Of a stretch of 51,827 nucleotides of DNA, positions 26,731-39,565 are shown in pieces. The position numbers and the translations under genes are program-made. The notes under the pieces were generated by a model. It had not been told where the DNA came from. It searched no databases and was given only the letters and a program-made list of their open reading frames with translations. Positions within the stretch are counted from its first letter, which is position 1; each line of letters opens with the position of its first letter. The stretch comes from Clostridia bacterium. Lineage in GTDB: Bacteria; Bacillota; Clostridia; Oscillospirales; SIG627. The stretch covers positions 1-51,827 of the forward strand of contig JAFUKG010000016.1 of assembly GCA_017467865.1 (NCBI GenBank), given 5' to 3'.

Positions 26731-26747
26731 TTTTGAAAGGAAATAAA

Positions 26748-27956
26748 ATGAAACGTTCAGAAAAAGTTTTTATTGGAATAATTGTGGCACTCTTAACTGT
26801 CGTTCTTATACTCGGGATCAGTGTATATGCAATCTGGCACAATGAAATTTCTGCTATTGCAAGCATGAAGCTTATTCGTGACAGAAATGACGAGCATCTT
26901 GACGGTGCAGTTTATACAATGAAAGTTAAGGGCGGTTTTTATCTTGACGATTTTGTTAAAGTGGGCGGTGTTAAAAACGACGCTGAGCTCATAGATTTTG
27001 TAACTTCAAAAATCACAAAAGGACTACTCGATATAGGTATCAGCGACCCTGAAATCGCTTGCTCTTCATTTACTGCAAAGAGCGAGAGCGGGGATGCTCT
27101 GTTTGCAAGAAATTACGATTTCTCAAAGACAAACACCTGCATTGTATTTACCGAGAAAAGCGAGGGCAGGCATGCTACAATATCTACTGTTGACCTTCAG
27201 TTCCTCGGCATTGACGTGGACAAGAACGTTGAAAGCCTTATGGATAAAATAACCTGCCTTGCGTCGACTTACGCGCCTCTTGACGGCATAAACGATGCTG
27301 GTGTAAGCTGTGGAATTTATATGACCTATCAAGGAGGAGAAGAGACTGTCCCCACCAACCAAAACACCGATAAGCCCGATTTTACTTCAACAACGCTTTT
27401 ACGTCTCATTCTTGATTATGCAGACAACGTAGAAGAAGCAGTTGAAATTGCAAAAAACTACGACCTGCACGATTCCGCAAAGACTTCTTATCACTATATG
27501 GTTGCCGATTCAAGCGGAAAAAGTGTTATTCTTGAATGGGTAAACCAAACGGATGCATCCGATAATGACGGTGAAGCAAGAGAATTAAAGGTAACGTACA
27601 ACGATGAGGATGCGCACATCGGTGAAATGGAAGGAGCTACCGATTATCAGGTAATAACAAATTTCATTATACAACCCAATTACTATGACTTGTCCCCTGC
27701 CGAAGATAAGAAGGGGTATGACCGATATGAGCGGATTTACGAAGAGCTGAATAAAACCGACGGAATCGTTAAAGACGAAGAGGCGGCAATGGATATTTTA
27801 AGCATTGTAGGCAGAAGAACCTGGGACAACGATGACGGCAACGGATGTACGGTTCACAGTGCAGTTTACAACCTTACCGATAAAACGGTTCTGTGGATTC
27901 CTAATGAAAACTATGATGACCCTTCTGCAGTTTTTGAATTCGGCTTTAACAGTTAA
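26748..27956 (+). CDS. membrane-anchored choloylglycine hydrolase/acylase family protein
   Basis: A 402-residue Ntn-type linear amide hydrolase. One N-terminal membrane anchor (about residues 7-30) is followed by a propeptide-like stretch and then the nucleophile region ACSSFTAKSESGDALFARNYDF. Cys105, Arg121 and Asp124 keep the spacing of Cys2, Arg18 and Asp21 in bile salt hydrolases. Family members cleave bile salts, penicillin V, N-acyl homoserine lactones or N-acyl amides; the substrate here is unknown. GAAAGGA lies 7 nt before the ATG at 26748. It is the last gene of the marR operon. Confidence 0.85.
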   Translation: MKRSEKVFIGIIVALLTVVLILGISVYAIWHNEISAIASMKLIRDRNDEHLDGAVYTMKVKGGFYLDDFVKVGGVKNDAELIDFVTSKITKGLLDIGISDPEIACSSFTAKSESGDALFARNYDFSKTNTCIVFTEKSEGRHATISTVDLQFLGIDVDKNVESLMDKITCLASTYAPLDGINDAGVSCGIYMTYQGGEETVPTNQNTDKPDFTSTTLLRLILDYADNVEEAVEIAKNYDLHDSAKTSYHYMVADSSGKSVILEWVNQTDASDNDGEARELKVTYNDEDAHIGEMEGATDYQVITNFIIQPNYYDLSPAEDKKGYDRYERIYEELNKTDGIVKDEEAAMDILSIVGRRTWDNDDGNGCTVHSAVYNLTDKTVLWIPNENYDDPSAVFEFGFNS

Positions 27957-28023
27957 AAAGTACTTTTGAGCATAACTTTCTATGTATATTAATAAAAAAA
28001 TTTTGAATTTTTTTTAAAAGTAC

Positions 28024-28052
28024 TTGACATCATAGCTTTAAAGTGATAAAAT
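28024..28052 (+). promoter_or_regulatory. promoter of the branched-chain amino acid operon
   Basis: TTGACA (28024-28029) and TAAAAT (28047-28052) are 17 nt apart. Transcription should begin near 28059, leaving a leader of over 500 nt before ilvA. Confidence 0.85.
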
Positions 28053-28080
28053 GCAAAAAATGAAAATTAAATATTTTAAA

Positions 28081-28179
28081 GGCTGTGACGAAGAATGGTC
28101 ATGGAGAAAAGCAGTACAGAGAGCTGATGTGCGGTGGAAATCAGTGTGCTATATATCCTTGCCCTCTCCCTTCCGAGCC
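28081..28179 (+). ncRNA. T-box Stem I, copy 1 (specifier CUC, Leu)
   Basis: GGCT (28081-28084) pairs with AGCC at the base, then GAAG with CTTC. The specifier CTC at 28166-28168 is separated from CTTC by one C. The distal part has AGTACAGAGAG, and CTGAT/ATCAG closing GTGCGGTGGAA. It is read as a tRNA-Leu(GAG) sensor. Confidence 0.75.
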
Positions 28180-28214
28180 GTTCACTTGAACCCCGTTTTA
28201 CGGTGCATAGAGTG

Positions 28215-28256
28215 TCCCGTGTATGCTACGTCAGTGCATAGAGGTTGTCTGACTTC
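28215..28256 (+). repeat. 42-nt leader module, copy 1
   Basis: Starts TCCCGTGTATGC and ends GTCTGACTTC; 41 of 42 positions match the copy at 28401-28442. It can fold as TATGC/GCATA or alternatively GTCAG/CTGAC. Here it leads into the second Stem I, not into an antiterminator. Confidence 0.95.
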
Positions 28257-28265
28257 AAATTAATC

Positions 28266-28365
28266 AAAGGCGTCGATGAAGACGGAAGCTGCAACGAATT
28301 TCACAGAGAGTCGGGGACGGTGTGATCCCGATAAAGGACTGTAGATTTCCTATCCCTTCTGAGCC
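28266..28365 (+). ncRNA. T-box Stem I, copy 2 (specifier AUC, Ile)
   Basis: GAAG pairs with CTTC, and GGAA-CTGCA pairs with TGTAG-TTCC above the specifier loop. The specifier ATC is at 28352-28354. AGAGAG (28305-28310) and TCGGG/CCCGA closing GACGGTGTGAT form the distal end. It is read as a tRNA-Ile(GAU) sensor. Confidence 0.78.
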
Positions 28366-28400
28366 GGAAGCCCCAAAGGTACAATCACCCAGTAGGCGTT

Positions 28401-28442
28401 TCCCGTGTATGCTACGTCAGTGCATAGAAGTTGTCTGACTTC
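28401..28442 (+). repeat. 42-nt leader module, copy 2
   Basis: One mismatch against 28215-28256 (A for G after TGCATAGA). It is followed by a short hairpin GCAGATA/TATCTGC (28452-28468) and then the antiterminator region. Confidence 0.95.
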
Positions 28443-28470
28443 GAAGAGGTGGCAGATATTATATCTGCAA

Positions 28471-28546
28471 TTTGAGTGGTACCGCGAGTGCTAAATTGGA
28501 TTTAACACCCGTCTCAAAGCAATTAAAAGCTTTGAGGCGGTTTTTT
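28471..28546 (+). terminator. T-box antiterminator and intrinsic terminator
   Basis: Terminator: CCGTCTCAAAGC (28509-28520) pairs with GCTTTGAGGCGG (28529-28540), one wobble, then T6. Antiterminator: TTTGAG (28471-28476), just before the TGGT bulge, pairs with CTCAAA (28513-28518) taken from the terminator's 5' arm. The two folds exclude each other, as a T-box requires. Confidence 0.9.
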
Positions 28547-28585
28547 GTTTTGCCTTAAAGCATAAACTTAAAGAAGAAAGGCGGA

Positions 28586-29782
28586 ATGAAAATGTTATCT
28601 CTCGACAAAGTATTCAGTGCACAGGCGGTGCTCAAAAGCATTATTCGTGAAACGAACGTGGTCAGAGCCTACGGTATTGCTCCCCATTGCGAGCTATATT
28701 TAAAACCTGAAAACCTACAAATTACGGGGTCGTTCAAGGTGAGGGGCTCGGCTTACAAAATTGCAATGCTGAGTGAAGAGGAAAAGAAAAAAGGCGTTAT
28801 AGCATGCTCAGCGGGAAATCACGCACAAGGTGTTGCTTTGGCGGCGACAAAAAACGGTATTAAATCACTCATATGCCTCCCCGATACAGCTCCTATTTCC
28901 AAGGTAGAGGCAACAAAAGGCTTTGGTGCTGAGGTTTGTCTCGTAGAAGGGTGTTATGACGATGCTTATCAAAAAGCCCTTGAACTGAAGGAAAGTGAAG
29001 GATATACCTTCGTACATCCCTTCGACGATGAAAACGTCATTGCGGGACAAGGCACAATTGCTCTTGAAATTTTAAACGACCTTGACAATATTGATGCAAT
29101 TGTTGTACCCATCGGAGGAGGGGGCCTTATCTCGGGTATTGCCTACACAGCCAAACAGATAAGGCCTTCTGTCAAGGTTTACGGTGTACAGGCTGCGGGA
29201 GCTCCCAGTATGTATAACTCAGTTAAAGACGGCGAAATTGAAAGTCTTTCTTCTGTTTCTACCATTGCAGATGGAATCGCCGTAAAAAAACCCGGTGAAA
29301 ACACCTATGAGCTCGTAAAAGAATACGTGGACGAAATTGCTCTTGTTACTGACGATGAAGTTTCAAGTGCTATTCTCGCACTTATAGAGAAGCAGAAGAT
29401 GATTGCCGAGGGTGCAGGCGCAGTTGCGGTTGCTGCGGTTATGTTTAATAAGTTCAACCTGAAAGGCAAGCGGGTTGTTGCGGTGGTGTCAGGCGGTAAC
29501 ATTGACGTTACAAGTCTCTCCCGCGTTATCGACAGAGGACTTTTAAATTCAGGACGTTCATCCAGCCTTCTTATTGAGCTCATCGACAAGCCAGGACAAT
29601 TGAAAGATATTTCACGTATCATTGCCGACTGTGGCGGTAACGTAACAGGCGTTCATTATGAGAAGGGCAATACCGAAAGCGTAAACGGTTGTTTCCTACG
29701 CATTGAAATGGAAACAAGAGATTTTGAACACGTTAACCTCATCACGAAAACACTTCGCGGTGAAGGATTTAAAATAGTGTGA
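28586..29782 (+). CDS. ilvA: threonine ammonia-lyase (threonine dehydratase)
   Basis: PLP enzyme converting threonine to 2-oxobutanoate, the entry to isoleucine. The 398-residue protein has the PLP lysine in GSFKVRGSAYK, the substrate loop SAGNHAQG, PLP-phosphate glycine loop GGGGLISG, and a C-terminal ACT domain (about 320-398, SLLIELIDKPGQLKDIS), the clostridial IlvA/TdcB form. First gene after the T-box. Two close starts exist: ATG 28586 and ATG 28592; AAAGGCGG is better spaced for 28592. Its place at the head of an ilv-leu operon favours a biosynthetic role over catabolism. Confidence 0.92.
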   Translation: MKMLSLDKVFSAQAVLKSIIRETNVVRAYGIAPHCELYLKPENLQITGSFKVRGSAYKIAMLSEEEKKKGVIACSAGNHAQGVALAATKNGIKSLICLPDTAPISKVEATKGFGAEVCLVEGCYDDAYQKALELKESEGYTFVHPFDDENVIAGQGTIALEILNDLDNIDAIVVPIGGGGLISGIAYTAKQIRPSVKVYGVQAAGAPSMYNSVKDGEIESLSSVSTIADGIAVKKPGENTYELVKEYVDEIALVTDDEVSSAILALIEKQKMIAEGAGAVAVAAVMFNKFNLKGKRVVAVVSGGNIDVTSLSRVIDRGLLNSGRSSSLLIELIDKPGQLKDISRIIADCGGNVTGVHYEKGNTESVNGCFLRIEMETRDFEHVNLITKTLRGEGFKIV

Positions 29783-29800: not shown

Positions 29801-30175
29801 ATGAAAAACATTGAAACAAAAATGGCTCCGGCAGCAATCGGACCTTACTCGCAGGCAGTGTGCGTAGGTAATCTGATTTTTACCTCCGGACAAATTCCGC
29901 TAAATCCCGAAACTGGACTTATTGAGGGTGAGGGCATTACCGAACAGACACACAGGGTATGTAAAAACCTAAAAGCAGTGCTTGAAGCTTCGGGAGGCTC
30001 GCTGAAGAGCGCCGTTAAAACCGTGTGCTTCTTAAACGATATGGCAGATTTCACCGCATTCAACGAGGTGTATGCACAGTACTTTACAGAAAAGCCTGCA
30101 CGCTCTTGTGTAGCGGTAAAAGCCCTTCCCAAGGGGGCGCTTGTGGAAGTGGAAGTAATCGCAGAAAAGGAGTAA
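29801..30175 (+). CDS. ridA: RidA family enamine/imine deaminase
   Basis: A 124-residue RidA (YjgF/UK114) protein. RidA hydrolyses the reactive 2-aminoacrylate and enamine/imine intermediates released by PLP enzymes, notably threonine dehydratase. Motifs: APAAIGPYSQAV, LIFTSGQIPLNPETG, and PARSCVAVKALPKGALVEVEVIA with the substrate-binding Arg. Its place right after ilvA fits that role exactly. AAAGGAG precedes the ATG by 6 nt. Confidence 0.95.
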   Translation: MKNIETKMAPAAIGPYSQAVCVGNLIFTSGQIPLNPETGLIEGEGITEQTHRVCKNLKAVLEASGGSLKSAVKTVCFLNDMADFTAFNEVYAQYFTEKPARSCVAVKALPKGALVEVEVIAEKE

Positions 30176-30178
30176 CAA

Positions 30179-31852
30179 ATGATGGATTCAAGTAAATACA
30201 AAGCGGGATATTTTCCCGTTGATAAAAAATATAATAAGTGGGTAGAAAAAGACCACGTTGAAAAGCCTCCCATATGGTGCAGTGTTGATATGCGTGACGG
30301 CAACCAAAGCCTTGTAATTCCTATGAGTCTGGAAGAAAAGCTGGAGTATTACCAAACACTCTTAAGTGTGGGATTTAAGGAAATTGAGGTGGGCTTCCCT
30401 GCTGCAAGTGAAACCGAGTATGAATTTTTGCGAACGCTTATTGACGGACATATGATTCCTGATGACGTGACGGTACAGGTACTCACTCAATGCCGTGAGC
30501 ATATTATCCGCAAGACCTTTGATGCCTGCAAGGGAGCACCAAGCGCCATTATACATTTTTACAATTCAGTCAGCGTTGCTCAGCGTGAACAGGTATTTAA
30601 GAAATCAAAAGAAGAAATCAAAAAGATTGCCGTTGACGGAGCAAAGCTTGTAAAAAAGCTTGCAAGTGAATACGAGGGAAATTTCCGCTTTGAATATTCT
30701 CCTGAATCATTTACGGGAACTGAGCCTGAGTATGCGTTGGAGGTTTGTAACGCCGTGCTCGACGTCTTAGAGCCAAGTGAGACCAACAACGTTATCATAA
30801 ATCTGCCCGTTACCGTGGAGATGAGTCTTCCTCACGTTTATGCAAGTCAGGTTGAGTACATGAGCGAAAATCTCAAATACCGAGAGTTTGTCACACTCTC
30901 TCTTCATCCTCATAACGACAGAGGTACAGGCGTGGCAGATACAGAGCTGGCATTGCTCGCAGGTGCCAACCGTGTAGAAGGTACGCTGTTCGGCAATGGT
31001 GAGCGCACTGGTAACGTGGATATTATAACGCTTGCTATGAATATGTACTCTCACGGTGTTGACCCCAAGCTTGACTTTTCCGATATGAACGGGCTTGTGG
31101 AAAAATACGAACGCTGTACCCGAATGCACGTATACGAAAGAGCGCCATATGCAGGAGCACTTGTTTTTGCCGCATTCTCCGGCTCACATCAGGATGCCAT
31201 AGCAAAGGGTATGAAATACAGAGCTAAAAACAAGCTTCACGAATGGAACGTTCCTTACATTCCAATTGACCCGAAGGATATCGGCAGAACCTACGATGCA
31301 GACGTGATTCGTGTAAACTCTCAGAGCGGTAAGGGTGGTATCGGTTATTTGCTTGAACAAACCTTTGGATACAACCTTCCCTCAAAAATGCGCGAGCATT
31401 TCAGTTACATGTGTAAAAACGTTTCCGACCACGAGCACAAGGAGCTAAAGCCCGATGAGGTTTTGGATATTTTCACCGCAAATTACTTAAATCTTGACAG
31501 CAGTATATCTGTTACCGATTTTGATTTTGAACGTGAAAACGAAACTGTAAAAATAAACATTACCTTCCTTAAAGACGGTGAAGAAACCGAGCTTGAAGCG
31601 GTTGGCAACGGACATCTGAGTGCAGTAAATAACGCACTTTGCGAATTCACCGGCGAAGAATATACCCTGCAGGTATTTACCCAACACAGTATGCAGGGAG
31701 AGGGCTCTCACAGCGTAGCGGCTTCTTATATAGGTCTTGAACGTGAGGACGGCACAATGTATTGGGGTGCAGGCACAGACACAGACGTAATTACCGCCAG
31801 CACGAAAGCACTTCTGAGTGCCTTCGCTAATATGACAAAGGGGGACAAATAA
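30179..31852 (+). CDS. leuA: 2-isopropylmalate synthase (long form)
   Basis: First committed step of leucine synthesis: acetyl-CoA plus 2-oxoisovalerate. The 557-residue protein is the longer LeuA type. It has the catalytic barrel with DMRDGNQSL and [19 protein letters not shown], the metal-binding [12 protein letters not shown], and [11 protein letters not shown], then a C-terminal LeuA allosteric domain (about 420-557) for leucine feedback. It lies 3 nt after ridA; two ATG codons in tandem open the frame (30179, 30182). Confidence 0.95.
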
Positions 31853-31853
31853 A

Positions 31854-33113
31854 ATGGGAATGACAATGACGCAAAAAATACTTGCCGCAAAGGCAGGGCT
31901 TGACAACGTGGAAGCAGGACAGCTTATCAGCGCAAAGCTTGATATAGTATTGGGCAACGATATTACCACTCCCGTCGCGGTAAATGAGTTTAAAAAAGCG
32001 GGCTTTAATTCGGTTTTTGACAAGAACAAGGTTGCTATCGTGCTTGACCACTTTGTTCCCAACAAAGATATCAAGGCAGCAGAACAGTCCAAGACCTGCA
32101 GAGAATTTGCTTGTGAACACTGTGTAAGCCATTTTTACGACGTGGGCAAAATGGGAATTGAACATGCTCTGCTCCCTGAACAGGGAGTAGTAACCGCAGG
32201 AGACTGCATTATCGGTGCAGACTCTCACACCTGCACCTATGGAGCTCTCGGTGCATTTTCCACCGGAGTAGGCTCTACCGATATGGCGGCAGGCATGGCA
32301 ACGGGTATGGCTTGGTTTAAGGTGCCTTCTGCCATAAAATTCAATCTGACAGGAAAGCTTCCAAATAATTGCAGCGGTAAAGACGTTATTCTCACCATTA
32401 TAGGCATGATAGGTGTTGACGGTGCTTTATATAAGAGTATGGAATTCACAGGAGACGGTGCACACAGTCTTTCCATGGACGATAGGCTTTGCATTTGTAA
32501 TATGGCAATCGAAGCGGGTGCCAAAAACGGTATTTTCCCCGTTGACAGCGTAACTCTTGAATATCTTAAGGGCAGAAGCGAAAGACCGCCCGTGGTTTTT
32601 GAAGCTGATGCTGACGCAGAATATGAAAAAACAATTGATATAGATTTGAGAAAAATCGTTCCCACAGTTGCTTGTCCTCACCTTCCCGAAAACACCCGTC
32701 CTGCAAGCGAGCTCGGTAATATAAAAATAGACCAAGTAGTAATCGGCTCCTGCACCAACGGCAGAATGGAGGATATGGAAGCGGCATATAACATCCTTAA
32801 AGGTAAAAAGGTTGCTGACGGTATACGCGTAATCATTATCCCCGGCACTATGCAAATTCTTCGTGAATGTGTGGAGCGCGGATGGTACACAGCTTTTATA
32901 GATGCGGGAGCAGTAGTTTCCACACCAACCTGCGGGCCTTGTCTTGGCGGATATATGGGAATTCTTGCCGCAGGGGAAAGGTGTATTGCAACCACTAACC
33001 GCAACTTTGTAGGCCGTATGGGACACGTAGACAGCGAAGTATATCTTGCTTCCCCCCACACCGCCGCCGCAAGTGCATTGACAGGATATATAACCGAATA
33101 CAAGGAGGCGTAA
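31854..33113 (+). CDS. leuC: 3-isopropylmalate dehydratase large subunit
   Basis: Aconitase-family subunit that carries the [4Fe-4S] cluster and isomerises 2- to 3-isopropylmalate with LeuD. The 419-residue, archaeal/clostridial-type protein shows [15 protein letters not shown], and the cluster cysteines in [13 protein letters not shown] and [13 protein letters not shown]. It starts 1 nt after leuA and is followed by leuD after 2 nt. Confidence 0.95.
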
Positions 33114-33115
33114 AA

Positions 33116-33613
33116 ATGAATACACAAGGAAAAGCGTTTAAATATCCCGATAACGTTGACACCGACGTTATCATCCCTGCCCGATATCTCAATACTCCCG
33201 ATGCAAAGGAGCTAAGCCTTCACTGTATGGAGGATATAGACAAAAATTTTGTAAAAGAGGTTAAAGCAGGCGACGTAATGGTAGCAGGCTGGAACTTCGG
33301 TTGCGGTTCCTCACGTGAGCACGCACCCCTCGTTATCAAGACCTGCGGGACGGGCTGTGTTATTGCTAAAAGCTTTGCAAGAATTTTCTACCGCAATGCT
33401 ATCAATATAGGTCTTCCTATATTGGAATGCGAGGAAGCGGCAGAAGAAATAAATAAGTATGACGAAGTAAAGGTCGACTTCGATACGGGAGTAATTACAA
33501 ACGTTACTACGGGTAAGACCTACAAGGCACAGCCCTTCCCCGCCTTTATACAGAATATCATTAAAAGCGGAGGTTTACTTAAATCCTTGAAAGAAGGCGA
33601 AAATCGTGGTTAA
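33116..33613 (+). CDS. leuD: 3-isopropylmalate dehydratase small subunit
   Basis: The swivelling aconitase domain that completes the LeuCD enzyme. The 165-residue length is the short type that pairs with 419-residue LeuC. The substrate-binding motif [15 protein letters not shown] (about 59-73) is intact, with [16 protein letters not shown] at the N-terminus. Confidence 0.95.
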
Positions 33614-34673
33614 AAATATAGCAGTTATACGCGGTGACGGCATAGGTCCTGAAATAGTAAACGAAGCGCTAAAGGTTATCGACAAAGTCGCTCAGCTTTT
33701 CGGACATACCTTCAATTATACTGACGTAGATATGGGCGGATGTGCCATTGACAAATACGGTGACCCGTTGCCCGAAAGTGAATTAAAAAAATGTGTTGAG
33801 TCAGACAGTGTTCTGCTGGGAGCTGTCGGCGGTAACAAGTGGAATGACGTGCCCGGCAACATGAGACCCGAAAAGGGACTGCTCAGACTCAGAGAAGGTA
33901 TGGGCGTTTATTCCAACAACCGTCCCGCGAAAATATGGCCTCAGCTAAGCGATGCCTCTCCTTTAAAAAAATCAATTGTTGATAAGGGTATTGACTTTAT
34001 TATTGTCAGAGAGCTTATCGGCGGTATTTATTTTGGCGAGCACAAGACTGAGGGAGACGTTGCAACAGACATGCTCAAATACAGCGAAACGGAGATTGAA
34101 CGTATCGGCAGAATTGGGTTTGAAACTGCGCAAAAAAGAAATAAGAAGCTCTGTTCTGTTGAAAAAAGCAACGTTTTGGATTCAAGCAGACTTTGGAAAA
34201 AGGTAATGCACCGCTTGTCAGATGAATTTCCCGACGTAGAGCTTTCTGATATGTTAGTTGACAACTGTGCCATGCAGATAGTTAAGAATCCATCACAGTT
34301 TGACGTAATTGTAACAGAAAATATGTTCGGAGACATTCTCTCTGACGAAGCATCCATGATAACAGGCTCCATAGGTATGATTCCCTCATCCAGTCTCGGC
34401 GCCTCTTCATGCGGATTATATGAGCCTATTCACGGCTCGGCGCCCGACATTGCAGGCAAAGACATTGCAAATCCTATCGGAACCATTCTTTCGGCGGCTA
34501 TGATGCTTCGTTTCAGCTTTGACATGAAAAATGAAGCGGATGCCATCGAAAGAGCCGTTTCAGAATACCTTGACGCAGGCTATCGTACAGCCGACATTAT
34601 GAGTGAAGGAATGACTCTTGTAGGCTGTAAAGAGTGCGGTAACCTGATTGCTGGAAACTTGAGAAAGGAGTAA
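33606..34673 (+). CDS. leuB: 3-isopropylmalate dehydrogenase
   Basis: NAD-dependent oxidative decarboxylation of 3-isopropylmalate. The 355-residue protein has [11 protein letters not shown], the substrate-binding [30 protein letters not shown], and the metal-binding [18 protein letters not shown]. The start is GTG at 33606, overlapping leuD by 8 nt, with AAGAAGG upstream. Confidence 0.95.
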
Positions 34674-34677
34674 ATTT

Positions 34678-36351
34678 ATGCTTTTATCAGGCTCAGATAT
34701 CTTAGTAAAAACCTTAATTGAACAAGGCTGTGACACAGTTTTCGGTTATCCGGGCGGGCAAATTCTCAACGTTTATGACAGCCTTTTCACTCATCAAAAT
34801 GAGATAAATCATATATTGACCGCCCACGAACAAGGGGCAGCACACGCCGCAGACGGGTATGCCAGGACAACCGGCAAGGTAGGAGTTGTAATCTCCACCT
34901 CGGGTCCCGGCGCTACAAATCTTGTTAAGGGTATCGCCACCGCTTATCTCGATTCTATCCCCATGGTTGCAATTTGCGGTAACGTTCCTACTACGCAAAT
35001 AGGCTCGGACAGCTTTCAGGAGATAGATATTACGGGTGTGACCTTGCCCATTACAAAGCACAACTATTTTGTGGGAAGGGTTGAAGATTTGGCAGACACC
35101 CTTCGCGAGGCCTTCAGGCTGGCGAAATCGGGCAGACCCGGACCAGTGCTTATTGACGTACCCAAGGACGTGCAAATTGAAAAATGCGAATACGTTAAAA
35201 TGCCCGCTGTGGAAAAGGACGAGCCCTTTGCCGCCAAGGACGTGCGTATTGAAGAAGCGGCAAAAATCATCAATTCTGCAAAGCGTCCCTTTATCTACTT
35301 CGGAGGTGGCTTGATTGCCTCGAATGCGGAGGATGAGATGCTTGCTCTTGCCGAAAAAATTGACTCGCCGATTGGTTGCTCGCTTATGGGTCTTTCGGGA
35401 GTAGCAACCGACCATCCAAGATTTTTAGGTATGCAAGGAATGCACGGACACTATGCGTCCTCTATGTCCATGCACAACGCAGACGTGATTATATCTTTAG
35501 GTGTTCGTTTTAATGACCGTGTTACGGGCAACCGCCAAAAATTTGCAACGGGAGCCAAAATCGTTCATATTGACGTTGACGGTTCAGAGCTCAACAAAAC
35601 CGTTAACTCGGTTTGCAGTCTTCGCGGAGACGTAAAGCTCACTCTCAAAAAGCTTCTTCTTCTGACAAAAGAAGAGAGAAAAGACGAATGGATGTCAAAG
35701 GTCAACGCTTTCCGCGCAGAAGAAGAAATCTATCTTGATAACCGCGAAGGGTTAACACCTCGCAGAGCAATTTTAACTTTGAACAAGTATCTCGGCGAAA
35801 ATACTGCCGTCTGCACCGACGTAGGTCAGCATCAGATGTGGTCGGCGCAAAGTCTTCGATTCAGGAAGGCAAGACGGTTTGCATCCAGCGGCGGTCTTGG
35901 AACTATGGGTTACGGATTTGGTGCCGCTATCGGTGCGGCATATGGAACAAAAGAACGCAGTGTTCTTATTACCGGGGACGGAAGCTTTGGAATGAACTTG
36001 AGCGAGCTTGCAACGGCTGTGAGATATAACGTTCCTGTGGTTGTTCTTATTATGAATAACGGTGTACTTGGTATGGTTCGTCAATGGCAGACACTGTTCT
36101 ACGATAAGCATTATTCCAATTCCGTTTTAGAGAGGAAAACCGATTTTACAGCTTTTGCCAAAGCCTTTGGCGGGAACGGTGAAGCGGTCACAACGCCCGA
36201 AGAATTAGACGAGGCACTCAGCCGTGCTTTTAAGACGGAAGGACCTTATATAATCGACTGCAAAATCGACAAGGACGAATTTGTTCTTCCCATGCTTCCG
36301 CCCGGGGGCAGTATGGATGACATCATTACAAAGCTGGAGGTGGAATTATGA
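34678..36351 (+). CDS. ilvB: acetolactate synthase large (catalytic) subunit
   Basis: ThDP- and FAD-dependent enzyme making acetolactate or acetohydroxybutyrate for Val, Leu and Ile. The 557-residue protein has the catalytic Glu in LTAHEQGAAHAADGYAR, the ThDP/Mg motif GDGSFGMNLSELATAVRYN, and the biosynthetic-type GNVPTTQIGSDSFQE. It precedes its regulatory subunit with a 4-nt overlap. Confidence 0.95.
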   Translation: MLLSGSDILVKTLIEQGCDTVFGYPGGQILNVYDSLFTHQNEINHILTAHEQGAAHAADGYARTTGKVGVVISTSGPGATNLVKGIATAYLDSIPMVAICGNVPTTQIGSDSFQEIDITGVTLPITKHNYFVGRVEDLADTLREAFRLAKSGRPGPVLIDVPKDVQIEKCEYVKMPAVEKDEPFAAKDVRIEEAAKIINSAKRPFIYFGGGLIASNAEDEMLALAEKIDSPIGCSLMGLSGVATDHPRFLGMQGMHGHYASSMSMHNADVIISLGVRFNDRVTGNRQKFATGAKIVHIDVDGSELNKTVNSVCSLRGDVKLTLKKLLLLTKEERKDEWMSKVNAFRAEEEIYLDNREGLTPRRAILTLNKYLGENTAVCTDVGQHQMWSAQSLRFRKARRFASSGGLGTMGYGFGAAIGAAYGTKERSVLITGDGSFGMNLSELATAVRYNVPVVVLIMNNGVLGMVRQWQTLFYDKHYSNSVLERKTDFTAFAKAFGGNGEAVTTPEELDEALSRAFKTEGPYIIDCKIDKDEFVLPMLPPGGSMDDIITKLEVEL

Positions 36352-36854
36352 ACCGATATACCTTAGCGGTTCTTGTACGAAATCAATTCGGAGTACTCAA
36401 CAGACTGACAAGCATGTTCCGCCGCCGTCAGTTCAATATCAGCTCCATTACTGCAAGCGAAACCGAATCGGAAAAATATTCCCGTATCACCTTCACCTTT
36501 GACGGTGATGAAAACGGGAAGCAGCAGCTTATCAACCAGCTATACAAACTGCCCGACGTTTGTTCCATCAAGGAGCTGACAAGTGACAATTCTCTAAGCT
36601 GTGAGCTGATGCTTATTAAGTTAAAAAATGACCCTAATTCCCGTGATGAAATTCATTCGGCGGCAGAGGCATTCAAAGCAGAGACAATTGATTATTCCCG
36701 TGACTCCGTTGTACTCAGGCTCATTGGCAACAGTAGCAAAATGGATGATTTTATCTCCCTTATGCGAGATTACACAATTTTGGAAATCTGCCGAACAGGT
36801 ACGGCATCTATTGAAAAAGGCGGCGCTACGCTGCGACAGAATTTAAACATATAA
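36348..36854 (+). CDS. ilvN: acetolactate synthase small (regulatory) subunit
   Basis: A 168-residue regulatory subunit with an N-terminal ACT domain (TLAVLVRNQFGVLNRLTSMF) for valine feedback and a C-terminal half typical of IlvN/IlvH. It overlaps ilvB by 4 nt (ATGA). The symbol ilvH is also used. Confidence 0.94.
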   Translation: MNRYTLAVLVRNQFGVLNRLTSMFRRRQFNISSITASETESEKYSRITFTFDGDENGKQQLINQLYKLPDVCSIKELTSDNSLSCELMLIKLKNDPNSRDEIHSAAEAFKAETIDYSRDSVVLRLIGNSSKMDDFISLMRDYTILEICRTGTASIEKGGATLRQNLNI

Positions 36855-37895
<1,041 letters not shown>

Positions 37896-37909
37896 TTGGA
37901 GGCATTCAT

Positions 37910-39565
37910 ATGAAAAAGGAAAACGTTGTTGACGGTGTACATAATGCACCTCACCGCAGTTTGTTTCACGCCTTGGGACTGACAGAGGAAGAACAAAAAA
38001 GACCTCTTATCGGTATCGTTAGCTCTTATAACGAGATAGTACCGGGTCATATGAACATTGACAAAATTGTAGACGCAGTAAAAATCGGTGTAGCGATGGC
38101 AGGCGGTACGCCCATAGTATTCCCTGCTATTGCGGTTTGCGACGGCATTGCCATGGGGCACACGGGGATGAAGTATTCGCTTGTTACACGTGATTTGATT
38201 GCCGATTCTACCGAAGCTATGGCTCTTGCCCACGGTTTTGACGGTCTTGTGATGGTGCCTAACTGTGACAAAAACGTGCCCGGTCTTTTAATGGCGGCGG
38301 CAAGGGTAAACGTGCCCACTGTCTTTGTCAGCGGAGGTCCAATGCTTGCAGGCAGAGTGGAAGGTAAGAAAACAAGTCTTTCCAGTATGTTCGAGGCGGT
38401 AGGTGCTTACAATGCAGGTAAAATTGATGATGAAAAGCTTCTTGAGTACGAGTGCAAGACCTGTCCTACCTGCGGGTCTTGCTCGGGTATGTACACCGCC
38501 AATTCCATGAACTGTCTTACCGAGGCTCTCGGTATGGGACTAAAGGGCAACGGCACTATTCCCGCCGTTTATTCTGCAAGAATTGAGCTTGCCAAGCACG
38601 CTGGTATGGCAGTTATGGAGCTTGTAAGGAAAAATATCTGTCCACGTGATATTATGACAAAGGAAGCCTTGATGAATGCGCTGACTGTGGATATGGCGCT
38701 TGGGTGCTCTACCAACAGTATGCTTCATCTTCCCGCTATTGCCCATGAGTGCGATGTGGAGCTGAATTTAGATATTGCTAACGAAATAAGTGCAAAAACG
38801 CCAAATCTCTGCCACCTTGCACCTGCAGGACGCACCTATATGGAAGACCTCAACGAGGCGGGCGGTGTCTATGCCGTTATGAATGAGCTCACAAAGAAAA
38901 ATCTTCTTTATACTGATTGTATGACGGTAACAGGCAAAACTGTGGGAGAAAATATTGCAGGCTGTGTAAATCTTAATCCTGACATTATTCGTCCGGTGGA
39001 AAATCCGTACAGCGAAACGGGAGGCATAGCGGTATTGAAGGGCAACCTTGCTCCCGAAGGAAGCGTTGTCAAACGCTCTGCCGTACTTCCAGAAATGCTT
39101 GTACACGAAGGTCCTGCAAAGGTATTCGACTCCGAGGAAGAGGCACAAGCAGCTATTAACAGCGGTGAAATCGTTTCAGGCGACGTTGTTGTTATACGCT
39201 ATGAAGGACCTAAGGGCGGGCCCGGTATGCGCGAAATGCTGAATCCCACCTCTGCAATTATGGGTATGGGACTTGGCAACAGCGTGGCGCTCATTACTGA
39301 CGGACGCTTCAGCGGTGCAACGAGAGGCGCTTGCATCGGTCACGTAACACCCGAAGCTGCATCGGGCGGTATGATAGGTATTGTGGAAGACGGGGATATT
39401 ATCAGCATAAATATTCCCGAAAATACAATCGAGTTGAAGGTTGAAAAATCCGTTATAGAAGAGCGTATGAAAAGCTTTGTGCCAAAGCAAAAGGAGCTTT
39501 CGGGATATCTCAAACGCTATGCTTCCCTTGTTTCGGGAGGTGCTTCGGGGGCAATACTGAACTGA
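37910..39565 (+). CDS. ilvD: dihydroxy-acid dehydratase
   Basis: Fe-S dehydratase giving the 2-oxo acids of Val and Ile. The 551-residue protein has the cluster cysteines in [10 protein letters not shown] and [19 protein letters not shown] and the C-terminal [15 protein letters not shown]. It completes the common branched-chain pathway; a branched-chain aminotransferase gene is not in the window. Confidence 0.96.

What the first reader, a model, noticed from the sequence alone, without database searches (positions are those of the whole stretch)
28075..28550. T-box leader with two different specifier domains (Leu and Ile) but one antiterminator
Seen: two full Stem I domains (each with AGAGAG bulge, GGTG terminal loop and GAAG/CTTC basal helix) followed by a single TGGTACCGCG T-box and a single terminator. 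The specifiers, aligned by the same flanks (CCT-NTC-CCTTCYGAGCC), are CUC and AUC. Known: T-boxes read uncharged tRNA through one specifier; complete tandem T-boxes, each with its own terminator, exist. Inference: here either uncharged tRNA-Leu or tRNA-Ile could dock on the shared antiterminator, an RNA OR gate for an operon that makes both amino acids. The UGGU bulge suits both tRNAs (discriminator A).
Basis: partly seen in the sequence, partly recalled or inferred. Interest (0 to 1): 0.9.

Follow-up and report, generated by a model that had tools for sequence, protein, structure and literature searches.

The report
Two-input T-box: leucine or isoleucine
The RNA leader ahead of a bacterium's leucine and isoleucine synthesis genes carries two predicted tRNA-reading modules, one with a leucine codon and one with an isoleucine codon, but only one on/off hairpin, so a shortage of either amino acid alone would likely switch the genes on.

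Summary
Upstream of ilvA-ridA-leuACDB-ilvBNCD lie two T-box decoding modules (Stem I, Stem II, IIA/B pseudoknot) with specifiers CUC (Leu) and AUC (Ile), then one antiterminator and one terminator. No degenerate antiterminator separates them (best unfiltered score -0.4 bits, against 117.4 for the real one).

The architecture is conserved. Of 80 related ilvA loci, 26 share it; gene-blind pattern searches gave six more. The order is Leu then Ile in 32 of 33 leaders (Leu codon in 31, GUC in one; AUC second in 32). One reversed leader (L087) belongs to another T-box subfamily and probably arose separately.

Both modules look selected: their Stem I strands coevolve within each leader (0 of 5000 permutations for either copy). 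Leaders with a Leu decoder mostly precede leu genes (42 of 46), Ile-only ones rarely (2 of 14), though kinship was not excluded. From promoter to ilvB, sister loci L062 and L063 differ by two blocks: the Leu module and leuACDB.

Best reading: complete tandem T-boxes work in series (AND); with one terminator the decoders work in parallel, an OR gate. OR is inferred, not shown. A 2022 review lists OR as unobserved among natural tandem-riboswitch gates.

The parts
28024..28052 (+). predicted sigma-70-type promoter (TTGACA, 17, TAAAAT)
   Evidence: 11 of 12 matches; consensus only
28076..28262 (+). copy 1: Leu decoding module (Stem I, Stem II, IIA/B pseudoknot, hairpin); no Stem III or antiterminator
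   Evidence: RF00230 36.0 bits; R1 81.9 bits; R2 unfiltered best -0.4 bits
28166..28168 (+). specifier CUC (Leu)
   Evidence: CM register
28218..28256 (+). copy 1 IIA/B pseudoknot and following hairpin
   Evidence: 97.3% of pair cells paired over 28 leaders
28264..28519 (+). copy 2: T-box with Ile decoding module and antiterminator
   Evidence: RF00230 71.6 bits
28274..28365 (+). copy 2 Stem I
   Evidence: R1 81.5 bits
28352..28354 (+). specifier AUC (Ile)
28404..28442 (+). copy 2 IIA/B pseudoknot and following hairpin
   Evidence: 94.2% of pair cells paired over 28 leaders
28452..28468 (+). Stem III
   Evidence: read from the sequence and the RF00230 alignment
28474..28516 (+). single antiterminator with T-box sequence TGGTACCGCG (28477-28486); bulge UGGU fits tRNAs with A73
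   Evidence: R2 117.4 bits for 28434-28544
28509..28546 (+). single intrinsic terminator with T run
   Evidence: inverted repeat
28586..29782 (+). ilvA, threonine ammonia-lyase (Ile branch)
   Evidence: TIGR01127 over cut-off
29801..30175 (+). ridA family
   Evidence: TIGR00004 over cut-off
30179..34673 (+). leuA, leuC, leuD, leuB (Leu branch)
   Evidence: NF002991, TIGR02083, TIGR02084, TIGR00169 over cut-off
34678..39565 (+). ilvB, ilvN, ilvC, ilvD (shared steps)
   Evidence: TIGR00118, NF008864, NF004017, TIGR00110 over cut-off

Best explanation
The leader matches a T-box RNA with two decoding modules in series, one carrying a Leu (CUC) and one an Ile (AUC) specifier, followed by one antiterminator and one terminator, and it is predicted to act as an OR gate in which either uncharged tRNA-Leu or uncharged tRNA-Ile alone would prevent termination. 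Shown by sequence and comparison: two modules, one antiterminator and one terminator, conserved specifiers, coevolving Stem I strands in both modules, and the Leu module tending to occur with leu genes. Inferred: each module binds its own tRNA by anticodon and elbow; whichever tRNA is uncharged docks its ACCA end on the shared UGGU bulge and stabilises the antiterminator; charged tRNAs are rejected there, so the operon is off only when both amino acids suffice. For the distal Leu module the Ile module would have to fold as an insertion that leaves the Leu tRNA's acceptor end within reach of the antiterminator; that geometry is untested.
For: Anatomy. Conservation: 27 dual leaders among 81 (80 ilvA loci plus the window), each with one antiterminator match on the coding strand of the leader at E up to 0.5; six more from gene-blind patterns, all upstream of ilvA, each with one. 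In all 33 no TGGTACCGC-like site (up to 2 mismatches) lies between the two Stem I matches; the Stem I starts are 177-199 nt apart. Specifiers in the 32 leaders of usual order: CUC 29, CUG 2, GUC 1; then AUC 32. The reversed leader L087 (Ile then Leu) again has one antiterminator, and both halves match RF00230 (63.2 and 95.7 bits). Stem I lower strands pair better with their own partner than with another leader's: copy 1 -11.98 against -9.11, copy 2 -10.23 against -8.26 kcal/mol, 0 of 5000 permutations each. IIA/B pseudoknot kept in both copies. Leu specifier and leu genes: 42 of 46 leaders with a Leu specifier precede leu genes, 2 of 14 without it do. L062/L063: L062 lacks a 178-nt block, the Leu module, and about 4.5 kb between ridA and ilvB, which in L063 is leuACDB. 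L027/L031: a copy-1-like Leu Stem I joined at the IIA/B repeat to the same antiterminator, which suggests that Leu decoder and this antiterminator fit when adjacent. tRNA-Leu(GAG), Leu(CAG) and Ile(GAU) with A73 in G310; Leu(GAG) and Leu(CAG) with A73 in G070.
Against: No binding or read-through data. The distal decoder must act across about 190 nt of Ile module. The minimum-energy fold does not show the T-box fold and is no more stable than shuffles (z -0.22 for copy 1, -1.14 for the whole). Window scores are below Rfam's gathering cut-off; of 8 other dual loci scanned, RF00230 lists a separate copy 1 match in 5, none in 2 (L096, L019) and one merged match in L061. 4 of 23 evaluable dual leaders have no leu genes in the stretch held and 2 of 14 Ile-only ones do. 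On the tree only 2 independent pairs on well supported branches (9 on the best tree) could be formed, so the gene correlation is not significant once kinship is allowed for. The shuffle control for the copy 2 pseudoknot is not significant (114 of 500), and pair-type diversity is not for either copy (320 and 357 of 500). In L048 the Ile module scores low (54.6 bits, basal strand changed). A GGNACC core occurs between the modules in L029 and L060, and a run of five or more T in 4 of 33. The duplex test does not fully remove effects of base composition and kinship.
Confidence: 0.68

Rival explanations
1. Both modules are functional but the logic is not a plain OR: the proximal Ile module is the switch, and the distal Leu module only modulates it, for example by cooperative or competing tRNA binding, or gives a graded, unequal response.
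For: The Ile module is next to the antiterminator in 32 of 33 leaders; reach of the distal tRNA is unproven.
Against: L087 has the opposite order with one antiterminator; the Leu module behaves like a cassette that tends to go with leu genes, which suggests a Leu response of its own; L027/L031 suggest that the Leu decoder fits the same antiterminator.
Confidence: 0.2
2. AND-like gate: both tRNAs must be uncharged.
For: Complete tandem T-boxes are described as needing two uncharged tRNAs (PMC12452182, passages and sections read).
Against: That logic rests on two terminators; in the window no second antiterminator or terminator is found, nor a T-box-like site between the modules of the 33 leaders, and one bulge can hold one NCCA end (established T-box knowledge; PMC7583486, passages). 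AND would leave the cell without expression when one amino acid is short.
Confidence: 0.06
3. Copy 1 is a decaying remnant of a complete tandem T-box and does nothing.
For: It lacks Stem III, antiterminator and terminator and scores only 36.0 bits with RF00230.
Against: Leu codon kept in 31 of 32, with a synonymous change (CUG) in L051 and L055; helices coevolve; pseudoknot pairs 97.3% kept; copy 1 scores as well as copy 2 with R1 in the window (both were in the training set).
Confidence: 0.04
4. Assembly artefact (a collapsed or duplicated repeat).
For: The two copies share a 48-nt repeat at 94% identity; the assembly looks faulty elsewhere (contig C29 mirrored).
Against: The same layout in 32 other leaders, from many separate assemblies.
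Confidence: 0.01

Closest known systems
T-box riboswitch (RF00230), Leu and Ile classes
   Same: Each module has Stem I, specifier, AG bulge, GGUG loop, Stem II and IIA/B; the antiterminator, T-box sequence and terminator are canonical.
   Different: Two decoding modules of different specificity share one antiterminator and terminator.
Complete tandem T-boxes (PMC12452182, abstract, sections 17, 19, 20 and passages read; also a sentence in PMC9413887, passages)
   Same: Two T-boxes on branched-chain amino acid operons of Bacillota.
   Different: There each has its own terminator (series, AND-like); here the first unit has none. PMC12452182 defines 'adjacent aptamers' with one platform but finds T-boxes enriched as the two-platform kind.
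Partially tandem T-boxes (one sentence in PMC7583486, passages read)
   [quoted passage not shown] this may include such a layout.
   Different: No anatomy, specifiers or mechanism is given in the passages seen.
Glycine riboswitch with two aptamers and one platform (PMC9481103, PMC12452182, passages)
   Same: Two sensors, one expression platform.
   Different: There both sensors bind one ligand; here two different tRNAs.
Two-codon T-box of Clostridium acetobutylicum (recalled; only the phrase was seen, in the listing)
   Same: Two tRNAs on one antiterminator.
   Different: Recalled as two overlapping codons in one specifier loop; here two whole decoding modules.
Tandem riboswitch logic gates (PMC9481103, section 41 and passages read)
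   Same: Two-input RNA gene control.
   [quoted passage not shown] OR is listed as not observed in nature.

Membership tests
T-box leader (RF00230) | Stem I with specifier loop, AGAGAG bulge, GGUG loop and GAAG/CTTC helix | tested here: met
   Both copies
T-box leader (RF00230) | T-box sequence in an antiterminator that competes with an intrinsic terminator | tested here: met
   Once only, 28474-28546
T-box leader (RF00230) | Specifier agrees with the amino acid of the controlled genes | tested here: met
   CUC with leuACDB, AUC with ilvA
T-box leader (RF00230) | Significant match to the family covariance model | tested here: met
   E 1.6e-15 and 2.3e-6
T-box leader (RF00230) | Score over Rfam's gathering cut-off (a curation threshold, not a biological feature) | tested here: not met
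   71.6 and 36.0 against 93 in the window; the antiterminator-bearing half reaches 96.5 in L170 and 95.7 in L087; no first half seen here reaches 93
T-box leader (RF00230) | Binds the cognate uncharged tRNA and allows read-through | not testable with these tools
   needs bench work; A73 and anticodons fit
Complete tandem T-box (AND-like) | A terminator/antiterminator after each unit | tested here: not met
Two-codon T-box (recalled) | Two codons in one specifier loop | tested here: not met
   One conserved codon per Stem I
Adjacent-aptamer riboswitch, glycine type | Two sensors before one expression platform | tested here: met
Adjacent-aptamer riboswitch, glycine type | Both sensors bind the same ligand | tested here: not met
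   Leu and Ile specifiers
RNA OR gate | Either input alone turns the output on | not testable with these tools
   inferred from one antiterminator and one terminator

The most novel reading that the evidence does not exclude
A natural RNA OR gate: two different tRNAs, each read by its own module, compete to close one shared antiterminator, and the gate was made from (or can become) a series AND gate by loss (or gain) of one terminator; decoder modules are swapped in and out as cassettes together with the genes they serve.
Probability: 0.6. Interest if true: 0.88.

Novelty: new variant of a known kind. Interest (0 to 1): 0.78.

Why it matters
If the OR logic holds, it supplies a gate that a 2022 survey lists as missing in nature (PMC9481103, section 41), and gives a mode of action for at least one kind of the partially tandem T-boxes that a 2020 review calls unexplained (PMC7583486). 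It would show that decoding and aminoacylation sensing in T-boxes can be separated by about 190 nt, and that tRNA inputs evolve as plug-in modules. Natural Leu-only, Ile-only and dual leaders with closely similar antiterminators make the question directly testable.

Tried and rejected
Single-sequence folding did not recover the T-box fold and was not used as support. RNAalifold on copy 1 alone gave only the distal Stem I helix and a spurious 3-pair helix, by my reading because MAFFT misaligned strands of varying length; it was replaced by an alignment-free duplex test. Alternative specifier registers (for example CUA or UAU in copy 2) were rejected because only the chosen register is conserved over 30 leaders. 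The pattern CTTCYGAGCY N160-190 CTTCYGAGCY matched 11 of 394 genomes; by eye, from the first 80 bases printed, 5 are T-boxes (G000, G070, G132, G257, G310) and 6 look like protein-coding or chance matches and were dropped. The class-wide pattern matched 4 of 391 (overlaps the former set). Exact patterns undercount. An R2 hit of 5.7 bits at L087:9717-9749, inside its second Stem I, was judged noise beside 64.6 bits for its antiterminator. L041 fell out of the tree (translation from the matched start stops after 4 residues). L096 shows the same module sequences and model scores as L024, and L041 is nearly L015, so the 33 leaders are about 31 independent ones. Papers: searches listed nothing whose title, abstract start or read passages describe this layout; the held library is open access only. 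The two reviews most likely to mention it (recalled as Vitreschak 2008 and Gutierrez-Preciado 2009) are not held, so absence from print is not claimed.

Full report
What is there. The window is contig C11 of a 1.59-Mb, 81.6% complete assembly. Between a choloylglycine-hydrolase-like gene (26733-27956) and an operon ilvA-ridA-leuA-leuC-leuD-leuB-ilvB-ilvN-ilvC-ilvD lies a leader of about 490 nt, counted from a predicted promoter (28024-28052). It holds two decoding modules. Rfam RF00230 matches both: 28076-28262 (36.0 bits) and 28264-28519 (71.6 bits), below the gathering score of 93. Each has the GAAG/CTTC helix, AGAGAG, GGTG, a Stem II, the IIA/B pseudoknot (CGU-UAUGC-ACG-GCAUA) and a following hairpin. 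Only the second is followed by Stem III, TGGTACCGCG and a terminator. The modules share a 48-nt repeat at 94% identity.

No hidden first switch. An antiterminator model (R2, built from 24 leaders including the window) gives 117.4 bits at 28434-28544 and, unfiltered over 28000-28440, at best -0.4 bits. The same unfiltered search of a relative, L063, gives at best 0.5 bits between 9400 and 9840. In 33 dual leaders no TGGTACCGC-like site with up to two mismatches lies between the two Stem I matches (85-106 nt); a bare GGNACC occurs there in two (L029, L060) and a run of five or more T in four. The window has one terminator-like site, where shuffles give 0.8.

Specifiers. In the model alignment the codons are CUC and AUC, each followed by C and the CUUC strand; an Ile T-box of the same assembly has AUC-A-CUUC in the same place (L006). 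Over 30 dual leaders the first module has C 29/G 1, T 30, C 28/G 2 at these positions and the second A 30, T 30, C 30, while the positions just before and after vary.

Conservation. With a Stem I model (R1) and R2, the 81 leaders (80 plus the window) sort into 27 dual, 15 single AUC, 15 single CUC, 9 single CUG, 7 without a Stem I match, and 8 undetermined because 650 nt or less of upstream sequence is held. Dual specifiers: CUC+AUC 23, CUG+AUC 2, GUC+AUC 1, AUC+CUC 1. Pattern searches that ignore genes added L096, L102, L103, L104, L170 and L171; all six are CUC then AUC, have one antiterminator match on the coding strand and precede ilvA. In the window assembly's own taxonomic family 1 of 22 genomes has the exact pattern, namely the window's, and the five other genomes of its genus have no close ilvA (best matches about 30% identity), so C11 may be a foreign or misbinned contig. 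This does not touch the finding.

Both modules look selected. The 5' and 3' strands of the lower Stem I, taken from 29 distinct pairs among 31 leaders, pair with their own partner at -11.98 kcal/mol on average in copy 1, against -9.11 with other leaders' strands and -7.61 when shuffled; in copy 2 -10.23, -8.26 and -5.90. Random re-pairing reached the observed sum in 0 of 5000 trials for each. The pseudoknot and hairpin pairs are kept in 97.3% (copy 1) and 94.2% (copy 2) of cells over 28 leaders, and fall to 25-62% when slid by one to three columns; against shuffles copy 1 stands out on cells paired (1 of 500) but not on pair types (320 of 500), and copy 2 on neither (114 and 357 of 500). The 41-nt pseudoknot element evolves partly in concert within a genome (86.3% identity between copies, against 83.9% between genomes, 2 of 5000 permutations), yet the first specifier base stays different, C against A.

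Specifiers tend to follow genes. Of 66 leaders with a typed specifier, 60 could be judged (6 left out for short contigs): leu genes follow in 19 of 23 dual, 23 of 23 Leu-only and 2 of 14 Ile-only leaders; Leu specifier against leu genes, Fisher p 1e-7. That test ignores kinship; only two independent pairs on well supported branches exist (nine on the best tree), too few for significance. The clearest case is L062 and L063, starred sisters in the quick IlvA tree. Their leaders share the promoter region, Ile module, antiterminator and terminator, and L062 lacks one clean block of 178 nt, the Leu module. Further on, about 4.5 kb between ridA and ilvB is also absent, which in L063 is leuACDB. The shared blocks are 85-92% identical; upstream of the promoter region the two loci do not match. 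L027 and L031 have a Leu Stem I like copy 1 of their dual relatives L029 and L044, joined at the IIA/B repeat to the same antiterminator; whether they lost the Ile module or never had it cannot be told. So each decoder also exists alone with this antiterminator.

A second origin. L087 has Ile first and Leu second, GAGG/CCTC basal helices and another F-box form, and again one antiterminator; RF00230 gives 63.2 and 95.7 bits. In the tree it sits in a clade whose other typed leaders are Leu-only or without a match, so the layout probably arose there separately, and order is not essential.

tRNAs. In the window's assembly tRNA-Ile(GAU) and Leu(GAG) were not found among 21 tRNA matches (16 of the 21 loci were read by ARAGORN, the other five lie in the same stretches or mirror one of them); the assembly is incomplete. 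In G310, which has a dual leader, Leu(GAG), Leu(CAG) and Ile(GAU) all have A73-CCA; in G070 Leu(GAG) and Leu(CAG) do, and Ile was not among the 18 stretches taken. All fit the UGGU bulge.

How it likely works. In a normal T-box Stem I and II read the tRNA and the antiterminator tests its 3' end (PMC7583486, passages). Complete tandem T-boxes put two such switches in series, so that two uncharged tRNAs are needed (PMC12452182, passages and sections). Here the first unit has lost, or never had, its terminator: the polymerase meets one decision only, and either uncharged tRNA could make it. For an operon with Ile-specific (ilvA), Leu-specific (leuACDB) and shared (ilvBNCD) genes, OR is the useful logic. 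It is suggestive that for L061 the Rfam model gives one T-box match from the start of the Leu module (1115) to the antiterminator (1552). That the distal tRNA really reaches the antiterminator is inferred.

Novelty. The paper searches turned up no description of this layout in what I saw of the held open-access library. PMC7583486 mentions partially tandem T-boxes of unknown action in one sentence, and PMC9481103 states that OR gates have not been observed among natural tandem riboswitches. Older T-box reviews could not be read. I file it as a T-box with a new arrangement of parts, not as a new family; the sub-threshold Rfam score concerns a curation cut-off, which the antiterminator-bearing half passes in L170 and L087.

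Noticed in passing
G000:C29 (window's own assembly): T-box hits occur in mirrored pairs whose coordinates sum to 256227, so this contig looks like an inverted duplication, probably an assembly artefact.
   Followed up: no
window (contig C11): The five other genomes of the assembly's genus have no close ilvA, while many other Clostridia carry it at about 75-95% identity; the contig may be misbinned or horizontally acquired.
   Followed up: partly
L057:4214-4305: The first module carries GUC (Val) instead of a Leu codon, next to a normal AUC module: a possible Val/Ile gate or a single-base error.
   Followed up: no
L087:9492-9949: Reversed order (Ile then Leu) in a different T-box subfamily with one antiterminator.
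   Followed up: yes
L027 and L031 leaders: Leu-only leaders that look like recombinants of a dual leader across the IIA/B repeat.
   Followed up: yes
L048:9685-9777: The Ile module of this dual leader scores only 54.6 bits and its 5' basal strand is changed, as if that module were decaying.
   Followed up: no
L015, L019, L023 first modules: AGAGAG and GGTG change together to AGAAAG and GATG, as if the elbow-binding loops coevolve.
   Followed up: no
L041:904: The leader nearly equals that of L015 but the translation from the matched ilvA start stops after 4 residues; frameshift, pseudogene or sequence error.
   Followed up: no
window 26733-27956: Gene upstream of the leader matches the choloylglycine hydrolase family (PF02275) and the acyl-CoA:6-APA acyltransferase family (PF03417).
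   Followed up: no
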